From: Chitinophagia bacterium
Lineage (GTDB): Bacteria; Bacteroidota; Bacteroidia; Chitinophagales; Chitinophagaceae
Assembly (NCBI GenBank): GCA_021324175.1
Contig: JAJPJP010000113.1
Coordinates: forward strand, 1 to 51,777
Direction: 5' to 3'
DNA length: 51,777 nucleotides
Shown here: one piece after another, positions 9,978-20,125 of the stretch
How the letters are laid out: each line of letters starts with the position of its first letter
Numbering within the stretch: position 1 is the stretch's first letter
Notes under the pieces: model-generated
Seen by the model: the letters and a program-made list of their open reading frames with translations, nothing else
Told to the model about the DNA's origin: nothing
The model's database searches: none
Position numbers and translations under genes: made by a program

Positions 9978-12900
9978 TTATCTAAAGTTTCTCCCTTTCG
10001 GGAACAGGTTGTCATCTGCTACGTTGCCAGCAACTGATCTTTTGATGTTAGGCGCATAAACTGGCGAAATAGTTTCATCAGCCCGAGACAGAGTTAGGAG
10101 CGGCAGGTCTTCTTTTTTGGTTTCAGTTAGGTTACGTAGCATCCCGGAAAGATCATGGCAGCGATTTACTATCACATGAATTACTTCGCCTTCCCGTTGT
10201 AACCTTCCTTCTGCCATTAAGAGGCGCGATCGAAGTATTTCTTTTCGGAACGTATCAAATAAATTGGCGAATACCACGAGGTTGGCGACGCCGGCCTCAT
10301 CTTCAATCGTAATAAAACATACACCACCGGCTGTGCCCGGACGTTGTCTGACCAACACAAGTCCTGCAACTTTTATCCATGCTCCATCTTCTGTAGATCT
10401 AAGCATGCGTGTAGGAACTACGCGCAAAAGTTCAAGTTTTTCCCTCACGAAGCTTACAGGGTGAGCCTTGAGAGAAAGTGAAGACGACGCATAATCGTTT
10501 ACCACGTGTTCAGAAAGAGGCATTTCAGGCAGCACGATTTTTTCCATCCCTATTTCGGGGACTGCCTGTCCGCGGAATATCCCGGTATAATGATCCTGGC
10601 ATGCCGCGATCTCCCAAAGTGCCTGACGACGGTCCAGCCCGATCGATCTAAAGGCATCGGCATCAGCAATCCTTTCAAGAGTTGATTTTGATATTCCCGC
10701 ATTGAGTAGTTCGTGAATACCTGAATAGGGCAACATTCTTGATTGAACCAGAATTTTCATGTCTTCTTCCCTTAGGCCCTTTACTTGCCGAAAACCAAGT
10801 CTAATCGCTCGAAATTTTCCTGACTGGTTTTCCAGGCAATTGTCCCAAAGCGAAAAGTTGATATCAACAGGTCTTACCTCCACTCCATGATTTTGTGCAT
10901 CGATTACAATTTGAGCAGGTTGGTAAAATCCCATCGGCAGGCTATTAAGCAGGGCGCAGGCAAATACATCTGGATAATACCATTTCAGCCAGGAGGAAAC
11001 ATAAACCAGTAGTGCAAAGCTGGCTGCATGGCTTTCAGGGAATCCATAACTTCCAAAACCTTCTAATTGCTTAAAAACGCGGCAGGCATATTCTCTGTCA
11101 TAGCCTCGTTTCATCATGCCATAGATGAGCTTATCCTCGAATTGCTTGACCTGTCCTTTTGCCTTGAATGTTGCCATGCTTCGCCTGAGCTCATCTGCTT
11201 CAGACGGGGTAAAGCCAGCGGCGACTATGGCAATTTTCATTGCCTGTTCCTGGAAGAGCGGAACTCCCAGTGTCTTGCCAAGGATTTCTTCCAATTCCTT
11301 CGATGGATATTCGATCGGCTCTTCTCCGTTCCGGCGCTTCAGATAGGGATGTACCATATTTCCCTGTATTGGCCCTGGCCGTACGATTGCGACCTCAATG
11401 ACAAGATCATAAAAAGTCCGCGGTTTTAGCCGGGGAAGCATCGATTGCTGTGCGCGGCTTTCTATTTGGAAAACCCCAATAGTATCCGCATGGCAAATCA
11501 TTTCGTAAACCGCATGATCGTCCTGAGGTATATTGGCAAGCGTAAGTTCCAAACCGTAATGAAGCGTAGCAAGATCAAATGCTTTTCTTATACAAGTCAG
11601 CATGCCGAGAGCAAGTACATCGATCTTTAGAAATCCCAGTGCATCGATATCATCCTTGTTCCATTCGATGCATGTCCTGTCAGCCATGCGCGCATTCAAG
11701 ATGGGACAGCAGTCAGAAAGTTTCCCTTGTGTGATGACGAAGCCGCCCGTATGCTGACCCAACTGCCGGGGAAAACCCATCAATTGCCCGGTAAGCTGAA
11801 GAACTTTTTTTAATAAGGGGTCATCGATATTAAGTCCCTGTTCAGCCAGTTTTTTCCCTTCGAACCATTCGTCAGTAAATTCCCAGATTGATGAGGAGAG
11901 GCAATTTATGGTGTCCGCTGAAAGCCCCATGACTTTCCCGATATCGCGCACTGCGCCTTTTTGCCGCTCCTGTGTCACGGTAGCAACAATTGCAGCCCGG
12001 TCTCTTCCATATTTTTGATAGATGTACTGAATCACTTCTTCCCTGCGTTCGTGTTCAAAGTCAACATCAATATCCGGAGGCTCATTACGCGCTGACGAAA
12101 TGAAGCGTTCAAATAAAAGGTCAAATTTGGTAGGGTCGACCGAAGTAATTCCCAGACAAAAACAAATGGTCGAATTGGCTGCTGATCCTCTACCCTGGCA
12201 AAGGATGCTATTCTTTCTTGCAAAGCTCACGATGTCATAAACAGTTAGAAAATAACTGGCATAATTCATTTTGTCAATAAAATCCAGTTCATGGCGAATG
12301 GTTGCTGCAGTTTTCTCGGATATGTTGCCGAAAATTTCTTTAGCCCCCTTCCAGACCAGCACAGTGAGTTCTTCCTGGGGGTTTCTGCCGTCGGTTGTAA
12401 GTTCCTCAGGGTAATTATATTGGAGTTCGCCAAGCGAAAAGCTACAGACATCTACAATTTCATCAATTCTTTCTATGACTGCCGGAAAATGCCTGAAAAG
12501 ACGATTCATTTCATCAATAGTTTTCATATAACGTTCTGCGTTTGGGTAGAGGCGGAAGCCTGCTTCCTGTATGGTACATTTTTCCCGAATGCAGGTCAGC
12601 GCATCCTGCAACTCCCTTCTTTGGGGAACATGATAGTGGATATCGTTTGTCGCGACCATGGGGACTTCGTAATCTGACGACAATGCATTAAGTCTAAAAA
12701 GCCATTTGGCATCATCGCCACTGTACCGCCTGCACGCCGCAAGGTAAAGGCCCTTACCAAGTGCATTACGGTATTCTCGTAGCGTAGTCTCAAAATCAGG
12801 TTCGAAATCGAAATTGAGGTCCAGCGATAAAGGAGGCACCATGAGAAATTTGATTGCTGACCCTGAAAGCTCAAATGCGTCAGATTTATACAATAGACAT

Positions 12901-13208
12901 TTTCCCTTTTCAGTTCGAAGATTTCCTTTGGTAATAAGAGCAGAAAGCCGTGAATATGTATTCTTTGTGGATGGATAGGCGAGTAGAGAAGGTCCGTCCT
13001 GAAAGTCAAGTCTACAGGCAGGGATGAATCGGATTTTTTTTGCTTTAGCAGTTTCATGGGCGCGTACGATTCCAGCGAAACTATTGCGATCGGTAATGGC
13101 GATCGCTGCATAGCCTAACATGGCCGCCTGCTCTACCAGTTCTTCCGGGTGTGATGCGCCATCAAGGAAAGAAAAATTAGAAGTAACCTGCAATTCGGCA
13201 TATCCCAT
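9978..13208 (-). CDS. dnaE2: error-prone DNA polymerase III alpha subunit DnaE2
   Basis: The protein has 1076 residues, the DnaE2 size and shorter than replicative DnaE. The N-terminal PHP domain is present (ELQVTSNFSFLDGASHPEELV). The polymerase active site appears as PDIDVDFEHERRE near residues 377-389. A later block reads SYGFPESHAASFALLVY. The C-terminal OB fold lies near residues 935-980 (VAGLVLVRQRPGTAGGVCFITIEDE). It is translesion polymerase, acting with ImuA and ImuB, that makes damage-induced mutations. It follows imuB by 18 bases in the order imuA-imuB-dnaE2, the standard mutasome layout, so one damage-inducible transcript is likely. No frameshift was seen. Confidence 0.95.
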   Translation of the reverse strand: MGYAELQVTSNFSFLDGASHPEELVEQAAMLGYAAIAITDRNSFAGIVRAHETAKAKKIRFIPACRLDFQDGPSLLAYPSTKNTYSRLSALITKGNLRTEKGKCLLYKSDAFELSGSAIKFLMVPPLSLDLNFDFEPDFETTLREYRNALGKGLYLAACRRYSGDDAKWLFRLNALSSDYEVPMVATNDIHYHVPQRRELQDALTCIREKCTIQEAGFRLYPNAERYMKTIDEMNRLFRHFPAVIERIDEIVDVCSFSLGELQYNYPEELTTDGRNPQEELTVLVWKGAKEIFGNISEKTAATIRHELDFIDKMNYASYFLTVYDIVSFARKNSILCQGRGSAANSTICFCLGITSVDPTKFDLLFERFISSARNEPPDIDVDFEHERREEVIQYIYQKYGRDRAAIVATVTQERQKGAVRDIGKVMGLSADTINCLSSSIWEFTDEWFEGKKLAEQGLNIDDPLLKKVLQLTGQLMGFPRQLGQHTGGFVITQGKLSDCCPILNARMADRTCIEWNKDDIDALGFLKIDVLALGMLTCIRKAFDLATLHYGLELTLANIPQDDHAVYEMICHADTIGVFQIESRAQQSMLPRLKPRTFYDLVIEVAIVRPGPIQGNMVHPYLKRRNGEEPIEYPSKELEEILGKTLGVPLFQEQAMKIAIVAAGFTPSEADELRRSMATFKAKGQVKQFEDKLIYGMMKRGYDREYACRVFKQLEGFGSYGFPESHAASFALLVYVSSWLKWYYPDVFACALLNSLPMGFYQPAQIVIDAQNHGVEVRPVDINFSLWDNCLENQSGKFRAIRLGFRQVKGLREEDMKILVQSRMLPYSGIHELLNAGISKSTLERIADADAFRSIGLDRRQALWEIAACQDHYTGIFRGQAVPEIGMEKIVLPEMPLSEHVVNDYASSSLSLKAHPVSFVREKLELLRVVPTRMLRSTEDGAWIKVAGLVLVRQRPGTAGGVCFITIEDEAGVANLVVFANLFDTFRKEILRSRLLMAEGRLQREGEVIHVIVNRCHDLSGMLRNLTETKKEDLPLLTLSRADETISPVYAPNIKRSVAGNVADDNLFPKGRNFR

Positions 13209-13226: not shown

Positions 13227-14729
13227 TCAGGCAAAAAAGCCATGAATAAACCATTGAGGGCTGCTGCAAGTAACATAGTGTCCCAGCCTGAAAAGCCAGT
13301 ATCGGCATCCCTCCTCATCCTCCACCATGTAGTAGTCACGGTGTTCTCCTTGCTCGAGCCACCATTCAGGTTCGATGCGCTCAGGACCATCTGCTTTTTC
13401 GATTCGGTGTAATTTCCCACGATGGCGGAAAAGCATCGGGGGATAGTCGGGAATTGGAGCTGTTACATCAATGCGCTCGGGTTTATGCAACAGATGTACT
13501 GGCCTGGGCCTATTCAAAGGCCATTTTTCAATAATTGGTTCGTCCAACGTGACAGCTGGTCTAAAAGTACGTTCGGGCCAATAACGTTGTGTGGGAAGGA
13601 AACGAGTGATTTGATTTTGTCCGATTCTGGAGGCAATCCGATCCAGGAATTCGGAAAACCGTTCGTCCTCTATACTTGATCGGGTAATCCATATTTTTTT
13701 TTGCCTGGGATAAAGATTTTCCACTACCACCGCCTCGAGCATAAACAACTCGATTCCGAGGGCGGGCTCAATGGTCTCAATATTGGGTTCGAAAAGTTTA
13801 AACAGATGAGTAACATGCACGGTTGGACTATTGGTGTTCAACTTTAGCTGCTGGAGTTTTCCATCAACACGATAACAGCTGAATATTGCCATTCGTATTC
13901 CTTTTTCTTCAGCAGAAAGTCGACGGCATAGTTGATCCAATAAGGTCCTCAGTGCAATTTCGATTCCTTTTGCTGTCACAATCGGATCGAGGGCAGGGAG
14001 TCTTTCTTGCCACGTTCGAGCGAGTTCAACCGGCTCAAGAAATTCTTCATCTTTTCCCAATGCAAGTCTAAGTCTCTTCGTCAATTCTTCTCCAAAGCGC
14101 CTCCGAAGTGTAGAATGTGGTATTTGCATCAGTCTTCCAATATCCCGGATGCCAAGTTTAAAAAGAAGTTCGAGCTTGTCAATGGAAAGCCGTAGCGCTG
14201 CGGGTTGTAAATGTTTCAGCGCGTCAGCCTCTTTTCCGCAAGGCACGATCATTTTCTCCTTTTCAAAATGGGCGACCGCCCAGGCAACTGCATGTGTGCT
14301 GGCGATTGCTATGCGCGTATCATACCCAAGTCTGGAAAAACGATTGCGAATAGCTGCGATATAGTTCTCTTCACCACCCCAAAGATGTGGGCATCCAGTC
14401 GCATCAAGAACTATACCTTCAGGAGGGTCAATACAAGCGACAGGGGAAAACCGAATACACCATCTTGCGATATTCTCCAGCAACTTGCCACTGGGTTCAG
14501 GTTTATCAGAAATATTTTTCAGTTCAGGAACGATCGCCTTTGCATCAGCCAGCGCCATGCCAACAAAAATTCCCAGTTTTTGTGCAAATGCATTGGTCGA
14601 AGATATGACTACGCGACCATGATCTGCAAGCGTTAATACGAATGGTGCTTCGCTGAACATTGGCTTCCGAAGGCTTACCCAATCAGTTTTGAGGTGTCGA
14701 AACCAAATCGAAACAAAACGCTTTGCCAT
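13227..14729 (-). CDS. imuB: ImuB-type Y-family polymerase homologue
   Basis: The protein has 500 residues. It resembles the UmuC/DinB fold but lacks the N-terminal catalytic Asp (the first strand reads FVSIWFRHLKTDW). In place of the Y-family catalytic motif it has LDATGCPHLWGGEE, the DxTGxxHLxGGE signature of ImuB. A helix-hairpin-helix-like part follows (LFKLGIRDIGRLMQIPHSTLRRRFGEE), then the little-finger region and a C-terminal tail. ImuB is the catalytically dead hub that binds the beta clamp, ImuA and DnaE2. Its ATG shares one base with the imuA stop codon, indicating translational coupling. It is 18 bases from dnaE2. Confidence 0.92.
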   Translation of the reverse strand: MAKRFVSIWFRHLKTDWVSLRKPMFSEAPFVLTLADHGRVVISSTNAFAQKLGIFVGMALADAKAIVPELKNISDKPEPSGKLLENIARWCIRFSPVACIDPPEGIVLDATGCPHLWGGEENYIAAIRNRFSRLGYDTRIAIASTHAVAWAVAHFEKEKMIVPCGKEADALKHLQPAALRLSIDKLELLFKLGIRDIGRLMQIPHSTLRRRFGEELTKRLRLALGKDEEFLEPVELARTWQERLPALDPIVTAKGIEIALRTLLDQLCRRLSAEEKGIRMAIFSCYRVDGKLQQLKLNTNSPTVHVTHLFKLFEPNIETIEPALGIELFMLEAVVVENLYPRQKKIWITRSSIEDERFSEFLDRIASRIGQNQITRFLPTQRYWPERTFRPAVTLDEPIIEKWPLNRPRPVHLLHKPERIDVTAPIPDYPPMLFRHRGKLHRIEKADGPERIEPEWWLEQGEHRDYYMVEDEEGCRYWLFRLGHYVTCSSPQWFIHGFFA

Positions 14730-15460
14730 TATACGACTTTTAGTTTCTGACCAACCAAGGTCATTTCATCCGGAACATCCAATAACCTAAAATTTCCCTT
14801 TGACCATTCCAGGTTCCAAGTGCCAGGCCTTCCATTCCGCATTTTAACCAATTTAACCTGCCAGCGAGGAAAACCAACACCAGGAAGGTTATGCGGAGCG
14901 CCGCTGGGAAGTTGAGAAATCTCCCACCTCGCTGTGCAGGCATTGACCGAATATTTTTGCTGGCTGCTCATTAGCATACCTGTTACGCGACTTTTCTCCA
15001 CTGCCAGCTGGAATTTCCTGGATGAGATAAAATTGATTTCGTGTAATTCAGCTACAACCGCTGATAAACCTTCGCAGGCAAGTGCTTCCTCTGTTATCCA
15101 TAAGGAGTCTTTCTCAGTCGTTGCATTTATAAAAATGATACGCTCCGGTGCAACCCCAAAACCTGTTAGCGCCGGGGGAAATACTGTTCTACCCGAATGT
15201 ATCCATACCGAGATACCTTCCGTCTTCATTATCCTTGAAAGAATGCATGATACAAAACCTAATGTGGCAGATTTGCTCTCAGGATTGGCGCTCTTAAATT
15301 CATGGACGGCTGCAAAAGGGAACGTCTGCCTTGGAAAAGAACTGCAGATGCTACCCAGGCCGAGATCAGTTTTTTGCTCCTCGACCGGCTGCCTGAAGCC
15401 CTGCAGAGAAAGGATTTCCTTTTCAAGGTTTGAAAAAATATTTGCTTTTAATGAGAACAT
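14729..15460 (-). CDS. imuA: ImuA-family RecA-like accessory protein
   Basis: The protein has 243 residues and is the first gene of the imuA-imuB-dnaE2 cassette. The core resembles a RecA/SulA-type fold (FPFAAVHEFKS, then GFVSCILSRIM, SVWIHSGRTVFPPALTGFGVAPERIIFINA, ALACEGLSAVVAEL), but the Walker A lysine is not obvious. That is usual for ImuA relatives, which bind ImuB and RecA. The stop overlaps the imuB ATG by one base. Regulation is probably damage-dependent: a 17-bp palindrome lies about 47 bases upstream. The N-terminal 40 residues are poorly conserved-looking; the ATG at 15460 is the only sensible start. Confidence 0.85.
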   Translation of the reverse strand: MFSLKANIFSNLEKEILSLQGFRQPVEEQKTDLGLGSICSSFPRQTFPFAAVHEFKSANPESKSATLGFVSCILSRIMKTEGISVWIHSGRTVFPPALTGFGVAPERIIFINATTEKDSLWITEEALACEGLSAVVAELHEINFISSRKFQLAVEKSRVTGMLMSSQQKYSVNACTARWEISQLPSGAPHNLPGVGFPRWQVKLVKMRNGRPGTWNLEWSKGNFRLLDVPDEMTLVGQKLKVV

Positions 15461-15506: not shown

Positions 15507-15523
15507 TACTAAATAATTTAGTA
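15507..15523 (-). promoter_or_regulatory. palindromic operator candidate upstream of imuA
   Basis: TACTAAAT-A-ATTTAGTA is a perfect inverted repeat of 8-base arms around one central base, 47 bases before the imuA ATG. On the imu strand it runs directly into TTTTG, so it would overlap a near-match to the Bacteroidota -7 element. A dimeric repressor is expected to bind here. Because the cassette downstream is the SOS mutasome, a LexA-like or S24/XRE-type repressor is the likely owner, but that gene is not in the window. Confidence 0.65.
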
Positions 15524-19058: not shown

Positions 19059-19820
19059 TCAGGTTTTTTTCTTCTTGCAAATGATAGCCATCTGATAGCC
19101 AATGTGGATCGTAGCAGCTCCCGTATAATTGGTTCCATCGGCTGCGTATTTCTGTATGTTGATAAAACCATAATTTCCCCCTGCTTCAATAAAAATTTTG
19201 CCATGCCCGCACATATATGCAAAGCCGACAGATCCGGCAAACCCAAGGTTAAATGAATGAATGCTGCTTTTTATATTTTGCGTATTATCGAAATTGACTG
19301 CATTGGAATCCACTTCCTCTTGCCCCTTAGGATCGGCATAAATGGGGCTCATTCCCGACGACACAATTTTTGCCGAAAGCAGGAAACCTGCAAAAACTCC
19401 AGCGTCCATAAAAAATTCCCACTTTTCAGCCAAAGGCAGCGTGCCTTTAGCCAATATGGGCAAAAGCAGGTAATTTAACCTAGCCTGGTTCTTGAAATTC
19501 GCATAAAAATAGGGAGGATTTGAACCAAAGGGGTCGGTTATCGCCTGGAGACCATTATGCTTACCCCCTTGGGCTGAATAGTCCACTTCGAATTGGAGTG
19601 AAAACCAATTGTTGAAAAAATGCTCTCCGAAAATTCCAAAATCTGGTCCGGTTCGCGAACTAAATCCATTAGAAAGTGGATTTTGATTGTTTGAGCCCGA
19701 AGTCAGATTAGGTATGCTCAGACCTCCTTTCACCCCAATGAAATTTGGGGCCTGCGCACTTATGGTTCCTGAAAGGAGACAAACGATTGGGAGTGCCAGT
19801 AAGCAGTTATAATATTTCAT
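19059..19820 (-). CDS. outer-membrane beta-barrel protein (PorT-like family)
   Basis: The protein has 253 residues from the ATG at 19820, which gives a clean signal peptide (MKYYNCLLALPIVCLLSGTISAQ); an ATG seven codons earlier is possible. The mature part has the GVKGGLSIPNL opening and paired amphipathic strands (FSLQFEVDYSAQGGKH, ARLNYLLLPILAKG, WEFFMDAGVFAGFLLSA, GFAYMCGHGKIFIEAGGNYGF) typical of 8-stranded Bacteroidota barrels annotated as PorT or outer-membrane-beta-barrel family. The end is basic (KKKKT), unusual for a barrel terminus. Its function is unknown. Confidence 0.75.
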   Translation of the reverse strand: MKYYNCLLALPIVCLLSGTISAQAPNFIGVKGGLSIPNLTSGSNNQNPLSNGFSSRTGPDFGIFGEHFFNNWFSLQFEVDYSAQGGKHNGLQAITDPFGSNPPYFYANFKNQARLNYLLLPILAKGTLPLAEKWEFFMDAGVFAGFLLSAKIVSSGMSPIYADPKGQEEVDSNAVNFDNTQNIKSSIHSFNLGFAGSVGFAYMCGHGKIFIEAGGNYGFINIQKYAADGTNYTGAATIHIGYQMAIICKKKKT

Positions 19821-20125
19821 GACCGTTGTTTTAGTAAGCATAAAATTAATGGATTTCAGCCGTTAGGGAATCTGTCGGATATTCGATATCGTTATATCAA
19901 TGTTATTGTCACCTCGAGGTAAATGCAAACATTGGTCACTTGCCTTGGATATCTACTCTTCTCAGAAATTTGAAGAACTGACTATTCGCTGATTCGAAAT
20001 GTTCAGAGCGAAATGTTATGCAGGAAACGTTATTTTTCGTCATTATTTAAAACCTTAAATCAGGTTATTTAAAGGCTGAATCTCTTTGAACAAATTTTGT
20101 CGCCATTCGATAATCATTAAATATC

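What the first reader, a model, noticed from the sequence alone, without database searches (positions are those of the whole stretch)
15507..15523. Perfect 17-bp palindrome before imuA-imuB-dnaE2: candidate SOS operator
TACTAAAT-A-ATTTAGTA has 8-base perfect arms and lies 47 bases ahead of imuA, running into a -7-like TTTTG on that strand. The cassette it precedes is the SOS mutasome. Bacteroidota often lack a classical LexA box, so the operator sequence of this lineage is of real interest. The palindrome is seen directly; the SOS role is inferred.
Basis: partly seen in the sequence, partly recalled or inferred. Interest (0 to 1): 0.75.

Follow-up and report, generated by a model that had tools for sequence, protein, structure and literature searches.

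The report
SOS operator before mutagenic polymerase genes
The short palindrome is very probably the on/off switch (an SOS box of a kind already described in Bacteroidota) that keeps an error-prone DNA polymerase cassette silent until DNA is damaged; in some relatives the same cassette has apparently been taken over by a different repressor and a different switch sequence.

Summary
The palindrome is real (15507-15523, 46 bp from imuA), but as a bare 17-mer it is no rarer than chance. It contains CTAA-N5-TTAG, the operator of the non-canonical LexA repressors of Bacteroidetes, for which imuA-imuB-dnaE2 was already a predicted target (PMC8565304). TACTAA-N5-TTAGTA occurs 4 times in the 5.1 Mb draft genome (0.06 expected), before imuA-imuB-dnaE2, dinB, umuDC and a second dnaE-like gene; CTAA-N5-TTAG also precedes recA and an HTH+S24 repressor gene. 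In family relatives the box precedes imuA in 27 of 29 readable loci of genomes with close homologues of this repressor and 0 of 9 without; at recA 14 of 14 against 0 of 16. The fresher result lies in relatives: in Taibaiella, Dyadobacter and others a sister repressor with another recognition helix sits beside imuA, whose operator is then TGTTA-like or otherwise changed but keeps the 5-base gap. Two genomes hold both, recA with one box type and imuA with the other. Binding and induction are inferred.

The parts
15507..15523 (.). 17-bp palindrome TACTAAAT-A-ATTTAGTA: SOS operator (extended CTAA-N5-TTAG box)
   Evidence: sequence; 4 exact TACTAA-N5-TTAGTA in the genome, each before a TLS polymerase gene; box before imuA in relatives
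15509..15521 (.). CTAA-ATAAT-TTAG core, the published dyad of CTAA-group non-canonical LexA proteins
   Evidence: motif from PMC8565304
15501..15508 (-). TATTTTGC: putative -7 promoter element sharing its TA with the operator; one base short of the TAnnTTTG consensus and fitting TAnnTTGY (both from PMC9723704, flavobacteria)
   Evidence: in 57 named loci with the box TTTG lies within 13 nt on the imuA side in 20, on the mirror side in 1; exact TAnnTTTG abuts it in 8 against 0
14729..15460 (-). imuA (243 aa)
   Evidence: NF033429 E 5.8e-15, below cut-off; homologues in 41 of 147 family genomes, own included
13227..14729 (-). imuB (500 aa, Y-family-like)
   Evidence: Pfam IMS E 1.1e-9
9978..13208 (-). 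dnaE2 (1076 aa, error-prone DNA polymerase)
   Evidence: PRK05672 1355 bits, over cut-off; Pfam DnaE domains

Best explanation
The palindrome is the operator through which a non-canonical LexA protein represses the imuA-imuB-dnaE2 mutasome operon. A dimer of the genome's HTH_3+S24 repressor (251 aa, G000:C208, L027:1366-2121 minus) binds one CTAA half-site per subunit, with the gap fixed at 5 bases, and covers the -7 element that begins in the right half-site, so RNA polymerase cannot start imuA. After DNA damage, RecA filaments make the repressor cut itself at Ala101-Gly102 with Ser138 and Lys177 (L027 numbering), and imuA, dinB, umuDC, a second dnaE-like gene, recA and the repressor gene are switched on together. 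Shown here: the box, its placement in the genome, its conservation, the repressor's presence, domains and catalytic residues, and the co-occurrence of box and repressor across genomes. Inferred: binding, promoter covering, RecA-triggered cleavage and induction.
For: Exact TACTAA-N5-TTAGTA at 4 places: 46 bp before imuA, 17 bp before dinB, 30 bp before a dnaE-like gene, 17 bp before umuD-umuC. CTAA-N5-TTAG also 66 bp before the recA ATG and 2 bp before the repressor ATG. The repressor has HTH_3 (E 8e-10) and Peptidase_S24 (E 3e-8); Ala-Gly, Ser and Lys are invariant in 16 aligned rows, own included. The predicted fold has an all-helical N-domain, a LexA/CI-like C-domain and a C-terminal helix, as PMC8565304 describes. 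The box lies within 30 bp of the ATG in 30 of 30 closest repressor genes, own included. Box before recA: 14 of 14 chosen genomes with this repressor type, 0 of 16 without. Box before imuA: 27 of 29 loci in genomes with it, 0 of 9 without. 80 named imuA loci: 74 boxes in 23,736 bp upstream against 7 in 411,127 bp elsewhere. PMC8565304 reports EMSA binding to CTAA-N5-TTAG, its loss on dyad or spacer change, and mitomycin C induction in Pontibacter actiniarum.
Against: No binding or induction data for this organism. The bare palindrome is not rare. 18 of the 33 CTAA-N5-TTAG sites of the genome lie inside an open frame of 70 aa or more, and some intergenic ones (C28, C199, C358) have no SOS gene near. 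11 of 38 family imuA loci and 23 of 80 named ones lack the box. The genomes compared are related, so the p-values are too small. The -7 element here is one base short of the consensus. The genome is a draft (88% complete, 450 contigs), so another repressor may be missing; one search also counts a second, unlisted match to the repressor in it.
Confidence: 0.93

Rival explanations
1. The palindrome is an operator, but of another dimeric regulator (a GGA-N5-TCC type SOS regulator, another XRE protein, or a stress regulator unrelated to DNA damage).
For: Many regulators bind short AT-rich palindromes. No binding was tested.
Against: The site has the CTAA-N5-TTAG dyad and no GGA/TCC. Its company in the genome is DNA-damage genes. 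The S24 search finds one HTH+S24 protein, the other hit being UmuD-like, and the HTH+S24 gene carries the core itself. In the loci read, the box at imuA and recA is seen only in genomes with this repressor type.
Confidence: 0.04
2. Chance palindrome in an AT-rich intergenic region, without function.
For: As a bare 8+1+8 palindrome, 1.05 are expected per window and 1 is seen.
Against: Placement before four TLS polymerase genes with 0.063 expected genome-wide, and presence at imuA in relatives whose ImuA proteins are 36-52% identical to this one.
Confidence: 0.01
3. A transcription terminator or RNA hairpin of the imuA leader, not a protein-binding site.
For: Inverted repeat followed by a short T run on the imuA strand.
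Against: The stem holds a single G-C pair and could hardly terminate (sequence reading; not folded here). What is conserved across loci is the CTAA and TTAG letters with a fixed 5-base gap and a varying centre, and the same box stands before other genes and next to the repressor's start codon.
Confidence: 0.02

Closest known systems
CTAA-N5-TTAG operator and CTAA-group non-canonical LexA proteins of Bacteroidetes (Sanchez-Osuna et al. 2021, PMC8565304; abstract, sections 12-16, part 1 of section 17, and section 20 read; supplements not read)
   Same: Dyad letters and gap; target genes (imuA-imuB-dnaE2, umuDC, dinB, recA, the repressor's own gene); HTH_3+S24 repressor with Ala-Gly and Ser-Lys; extra C-terminal helix.
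   Different: This copy has a longer perfect palindrome. Candidate targets in this genome not seen named in the sections read: uvrA, a 2'-5' RNA ligase-like gene, an Nmad2-like gene, a tnpB-type element.
Elizabethkingia anophelis regulator with TTAC-AAATT-GTAA and a divergent error-prone polymerase gene (same paper, section 16)
   Same: Same layout as the type B pairs found here in relatives: paralogous repressor, divergent TLS polymerase gene, changed dyad with 5-base gap.
   Different: The dyads here are TGTTAT/TGTCAC-N5, TTGATAC-N5 and TTATTGATAT-N5 types and stand at imuA in Chitinophagaceae and Dyadobacter.
Classical LexA / SOS box (E. coli, B. subtilis; recalled)
   Same: Works alike: S24 repressor on a palindrome before SOS genes.
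   Different: N-terminal domain is an all-helical CI-type HTH in profile and model, not the LexA winged HTH; the box letters differ.

Membership tests
CTAA-N5-TTAG SOS operator of Bacteroidetes | CTAA-N5-TTAG dyad with exact 5-base gap | tested here: met
   15509-15521
CTAA-N5-TTAG SOS operator of Bacteroidetes | stands before SOS genes in the same genome | tested here: met
   imuA, dinB, umuDC, dnaE-like, recA, repressor gene
CTAA-N5-TTAG SOS operator of Bacteroidetes | found upstream of the same gene in relatives that hold the repressor | tested here: met
   imuA 27 of 29 loci, recA 14 of 14 chosen genomes
CTAA-N5-TTAG SOS operator of Bacteroidetes | bound by the cognate repressor; induced by DNA damage | not testable with these tools
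   needs EMSA and RT-qPCR; reported for Pontibacter actiniarum in PMC8565304
CTAA-group non-canonical LexA protein (L027) | CI-type HTH (PF01381) plus Peptidase_S24 | tested here: met
   all-helical N-domain and LexA/CI-like C-domain in the model
CTAA-group non-canonical LexA protein (L027) | Ala-Gly scissile bond and Ser-Lys dyad | tested here: met
   A101-G102, S138, K177 invariant in 16 rows; cleavage itself not tested
CTAA-group non-canonical LexA protein (L027) | own promoter carries the box | tested here: met
   CTAATTAATTTAG 2 bp from its ATG; 30 of 30 closest genes, own included
CTAA-group non-canonical LexA protein (L027) | falls in one clade with the tested protein of P. actiniarum (WP_025606010.1) | not tested
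   that sequence was not at hand
Classical LexA | winged-HTH LexA DNA-binding domain | tested here: not met
   hmmscan of L027 gives HTH_3, HTH_19, HTH_31 and Peptidase_S24 only
GGA-N5-TCC SOS operator (Flavobacteriaceae type) | GGA-N5-TCC dyad | tested here: not met
   the palindrome has no GGA or TCC

The most novel reading that the evidence does not exclude
The imuA mutasome cassette changes repressor and operator during evolution while recA stays behind. In Taibaiella, Dyadobacter and other genera a sister clade of HTH+S24 repressors (type B) with a different recognition helix (xRxKLxA in place of KRSLLGAY) sits divergently beside imuA or beside dinB-like genes, and the shared region has mostly tandem TGTTAT-like (or, in Dyadobacter, TTGATAC- or TTATTGATAT-like) dyads that keep the 5-base gap. 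Two genomes (G018, G055) hold both repressors: recA keeps CTAA-N5-TTAG and imuA carries the changed dyad. That would be a split SOS regulon caught between the steps of the duplication-and-takeover model, with mutagenesis controlled separately from recA.
Probability: 0.7. Interest if true: 0.6.

Novelty: new member of a known kind. Interest (0 to 1): 0.42.

Why it matters
For the window itself it settles, as far as sequence can, that the mutagenic cassette of this lineage is under an already described type of SOS control, and it names the repressor gene to test. The wider comparison gives a natural experiment: related genomes that share the cassette but differ in repressor type differ in operator in step, and two hold both. 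That makes two questions testable with a few promoter-repressor swaps: how SOS repressors change their binding sites, and whether mutagenesis can be uncoupled from the rest of the SOS response.

Tried and rejected
Bare palindrome rarity as evidence: rejected, no excess over shuffles. Genome-wide excess of the 8-letter core: none (33 against about 50 expected); only the extended form and the placement inform. The backward-pattern counts printed by the search (187 against 33, 57 against 17, 678 against 105) show no excess either; I do not lean on them, since the backward words have another composition.

TnpB lead: two cores 24 bp apart stand before an IS605-type tnpB (C402), a similar pair is at the edge of C64, and one core is before a truncated copy (C46). 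Two other tnpB-like places of the own genome (L211, L212) have none, and 23 of 23 tnpB-like places in five other family genomes have none within 250 bp (one search was a misplaced run of the same check and is not used). SOS control of this element is unproven; the cores may be part of its end structure.

TGTYAY-N5-RTRACA as a large second regulon: in 12 type B genomes the pattern has 66 sites against 57 for its backward control, so if real, that regulon is small. No match with up to 1 mismatch lies within 350 bp before recA in the 16 genomes lacking type A. The type B operator label covers several variants: L132, L134, L139 and L140 have perfect dyads with arms of 6 or more, most others imperfect ones, and for L142 and L143 the match is poor. 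On the tree I labelled all 12 plus 5 named genes together, so the one-clade result (100/97) shows that the proteins form a clade, not that each operator is proven. Genes beside type B other than imuA were called dinB-like or Y-family by eye from their N-termini. In 7 of the 17 named loci with neither motif I saw no long palindrome (L282, L283, L308, L315, L317, L321, L322), so their control is unknown.

Fold search: nothing concluded from families not listed. Literature: of the papers listed by three searches (20 of 30, 15 of 49, 15 of 266; titles and abstract starts seen), PMC8565304 is the only one on this operator that I recognised; its supplements (Table S10, diverged palindromes) could not be read and may already list type B dyads.

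Full report
Observation. The palindrome TACTAAAT-A-ATTTAGTA is at 15507-15523, 46 bases before the ATG of imuA (15460, minus strand), and runs on the imuA strand into TATTTTGC. It is the only match in the window with up to 3 mismatches. As a bare palindrome it is unremarkable: one perfect 8+1+8 repeat in the window, 1.05 on average in 60 dinucleotide shuffles.

Placement in the genome. The first genome scan showed sites sharing TACTAA...TTAGTA with a free centre. TACTAA-N5-TTAGTA occurs exactly four times in the 5.11 Mb draft genome, 0.063 expected from a first-order model of the window. The four stand before imuA-imuB-dnaE2 (window), dinB (C141), a dnaE-like gene without imuA or imuB directly before it (C184, cut by the contig end) and umuD-umuC (C228). 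The core CTAA-N5-TTAG occurs 33 times, no more than chance (about 50 expected). I looked at all 33. Intergenic cores close to a start codon stand before recA (66 bp from its ATG), the HTH+S24 repressor gene (2 bp), an Nmad2-like gene (41 bp; Pfam hit below cut-off), a 2'-5' RNA ligase-like gene (26 bp), tnpB copies and, further off, uvrA (171 bp from its first possible start). 18 of the 33 lie inside an open frame of 70 aa or more, among them the dinB site (in an opposite frame without a Pfam match) and one tnpB site; the others of these look like chance. Three more (C28, C199, C358) have no DNA-damage gene near.

The repressor. A Peptidase_S24 search of the genome gives two proteins: a UmuD-like one and a 251-aa HTH_3+S24 protein on C208. 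The latter has A101-G102, S138 and K177, invariant in 16 aligned rows that include 3 type B proteins. Its predicted structure (mean pLDDT 71.5, pTM 0.47, linker poor) has five N-terminal helices without a wing, an S24-like beta domain and a C-terminal helix 229-250; the N-domain aligns with P22 c2, SinR and ImmR, the C-domain with LexA and lambda CI. These are traits that Sanchez-Osuna et al. 2021 (PMC8565304; abstract, sections 12-16, part 1 of 17 and section 20 read) give for the non-canonical LexA proteins of Bacteroidetes. That paper reports CTAA-N5-TTAG as the operator of one of their two groups, names imuA-imuB-dnaE2 among the targets with evidence in several species and Chitinophagaceae among the families with large regulons, and reports EMSA and mitomycin C data for Pontibacter actiniarum. 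So the reading 'SOS operator' fits and the operator class is known.

Presence at imuA. ImuA homologues were found in 41 of 147 family genomes, own included. The upstream region could be read for 38 of 41 relatives' imuA places (29, 9 more; dropped: G124 at a contig edge, G123 and G114 short fragments). CTAA-N5-TTAG is present in 27 of 38, twice in 7 of these, 22-24 bp apart. A named set from public genomes (the best 80 of 417 relatives; it overlaps the unnamed set: contig lengths of Pinibacter soli, Segetibacter aerophilus, Taibaiella koreensis and others agree) gives 57 of 80 with the box, 6 with a TGTYA dyad (up to 1 mismatch), 17 with neither; density 74 boxes in 23,736 bp upstream against 7 in 411,127 bp elsewhere. 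In the 57, TTTG lies within 13 nt on the imuA side in 20 and on the mirror side in 1; TAnnnTTG abuts the box in 18 against 0 and exact TAnnTTTG in 8 against 0. The box thus often overlaps the expected -7 element (TAnnTTTG of flavobacteria, PMC9723704, two passages seen), which fits repression by covering the promoter, though 37 of 57 loci do not show TTTG there.

Repressor and box go together. Close homologues of the repressor (type A, 51% identity or more) are in 112 of 147 family genomes, own included (my count; one of them has an in-frame stop). 30 of 30 closest genes, own included, carry the box within 30 bp of their ATG. Of 38 imuA loci, the box is present in 27 of 29 in genomes with type A and 0 of 9 (8 genomes) without (Fisher 3e-7). 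recA was read, 350 bp upstream, in 30 genomes that I chose by repressor type: box in 14 of 14 with type A, 0 of 16 without (Fisher 7e-9). The genomes are related, so these p-values overstate independence, but there is no exception at recA, where the box is not beside the repressor gene.

The exceptions point to a second system. The two type A genomes whose imuA lacks the box (G018, G055) have a second HTH+S24 gene (type B) directly and divergently beside imuA; their recA keeps CTAA-N5-TTAG. 0 of 12 type B genes carry CTAA-N5-TTAG within 200 bp; instead one sees mostly tandem dyads such as TGTTATCAATAATAACA and TTGTCACCAATGGTGACAA, again with a 5-base gap. In named Dyadobacter loci the imuA dyads vary further: TGTTAT-like, TTGATAC-N5-GTATCAA, TTATTGATAT-N5-ATATCAATAA, several with a divergent S24 gene. 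Type B proteins form one clade (17 rows, 100/97; the Pfam S24 match of the three scanned is weak or absent, but the Ala-Gly, Ser and Lys are there in the three type B rows). The recognition helices differ in step: KRSL(L/I/V/M)GAYEE(E/Q)RA(E/D)PR in all 39 rows of the main type A clade, xRxK(L/V)xxxE in type B. This looks like the duplication-and-takeover model of PMC8565304 (section 20) in progress, at the mutasome first. It is unproven by experiment, and the TGTYAY pattern is not in clear excess in the 12 genomes tested (66 sites against 57 for the backward control), so any type B regulon would be small.

Verdict. The finding is real and correctly read, but ordinary in kind: a new member of a published operator class. 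The part worth a specialist's time is the operator and repressor exchange at imuA in sister genera.

Noticed in passing
L026:1423-1869 (G000:C228), umuD-like gene: The UmuD-like protein before umuC lacks the S24 active site by alignment to solved UmuD (1umu, 8gmt): GDSM reads GNAM (Ser to Ala), the KK of TVKKL reads RR, and the Cys before the scissile Gly is Thr. It may be a UmuD that cannot cut itself, under the same box.
   Followed up: partly
G000:C402:305-343, C64:3-43, C46:757-773: CTAA-N5-TTAG cores (pairs 24 bp apart on C402 and C64) just upstream of copies of an IS605-type tnpB (the C64 gene itself lies beyond the contig edge); possibly a mobile element under SOS control, or part of its end structure. 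Not seen at 23 tnpB-like places of five other family genomes.
   Followed up: partly
G000:C184:1-1223 (L003): A second PHP/DnaE-like polymerase gene (cut by the contig end, no imuA/imuB directly before it) with an exact TACTAA-N5-TTAGTA box 30 bp before its ATG.
   Followed up: partly
G000:C61:2679-2695 and G000:C284:2990-3006: Cores 41 and 26 bp before an Nmad2-like gene (below Pfam cut-off) and a 2'-5' RNA ligase-like gene: unexpected candidate SOS targets.
   Followed up: partly
window 19658-19674: A second CTAA-N5-TTAG site in the window (AACTAAATCCATTAGAA) lies inside an open frame (19059-19841 minus, outer-membrane-protein-like by eye) and is probably chance.
   Followed up: no
L264, L278, L311, L298, L299, L305, L312 (Dyadobacter imuA loci), with L247, L249, L276: Within one genus the palindrome upstream of imuA has at least three different arm sequences, all with a 5-base gap.
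   Followed up: partly
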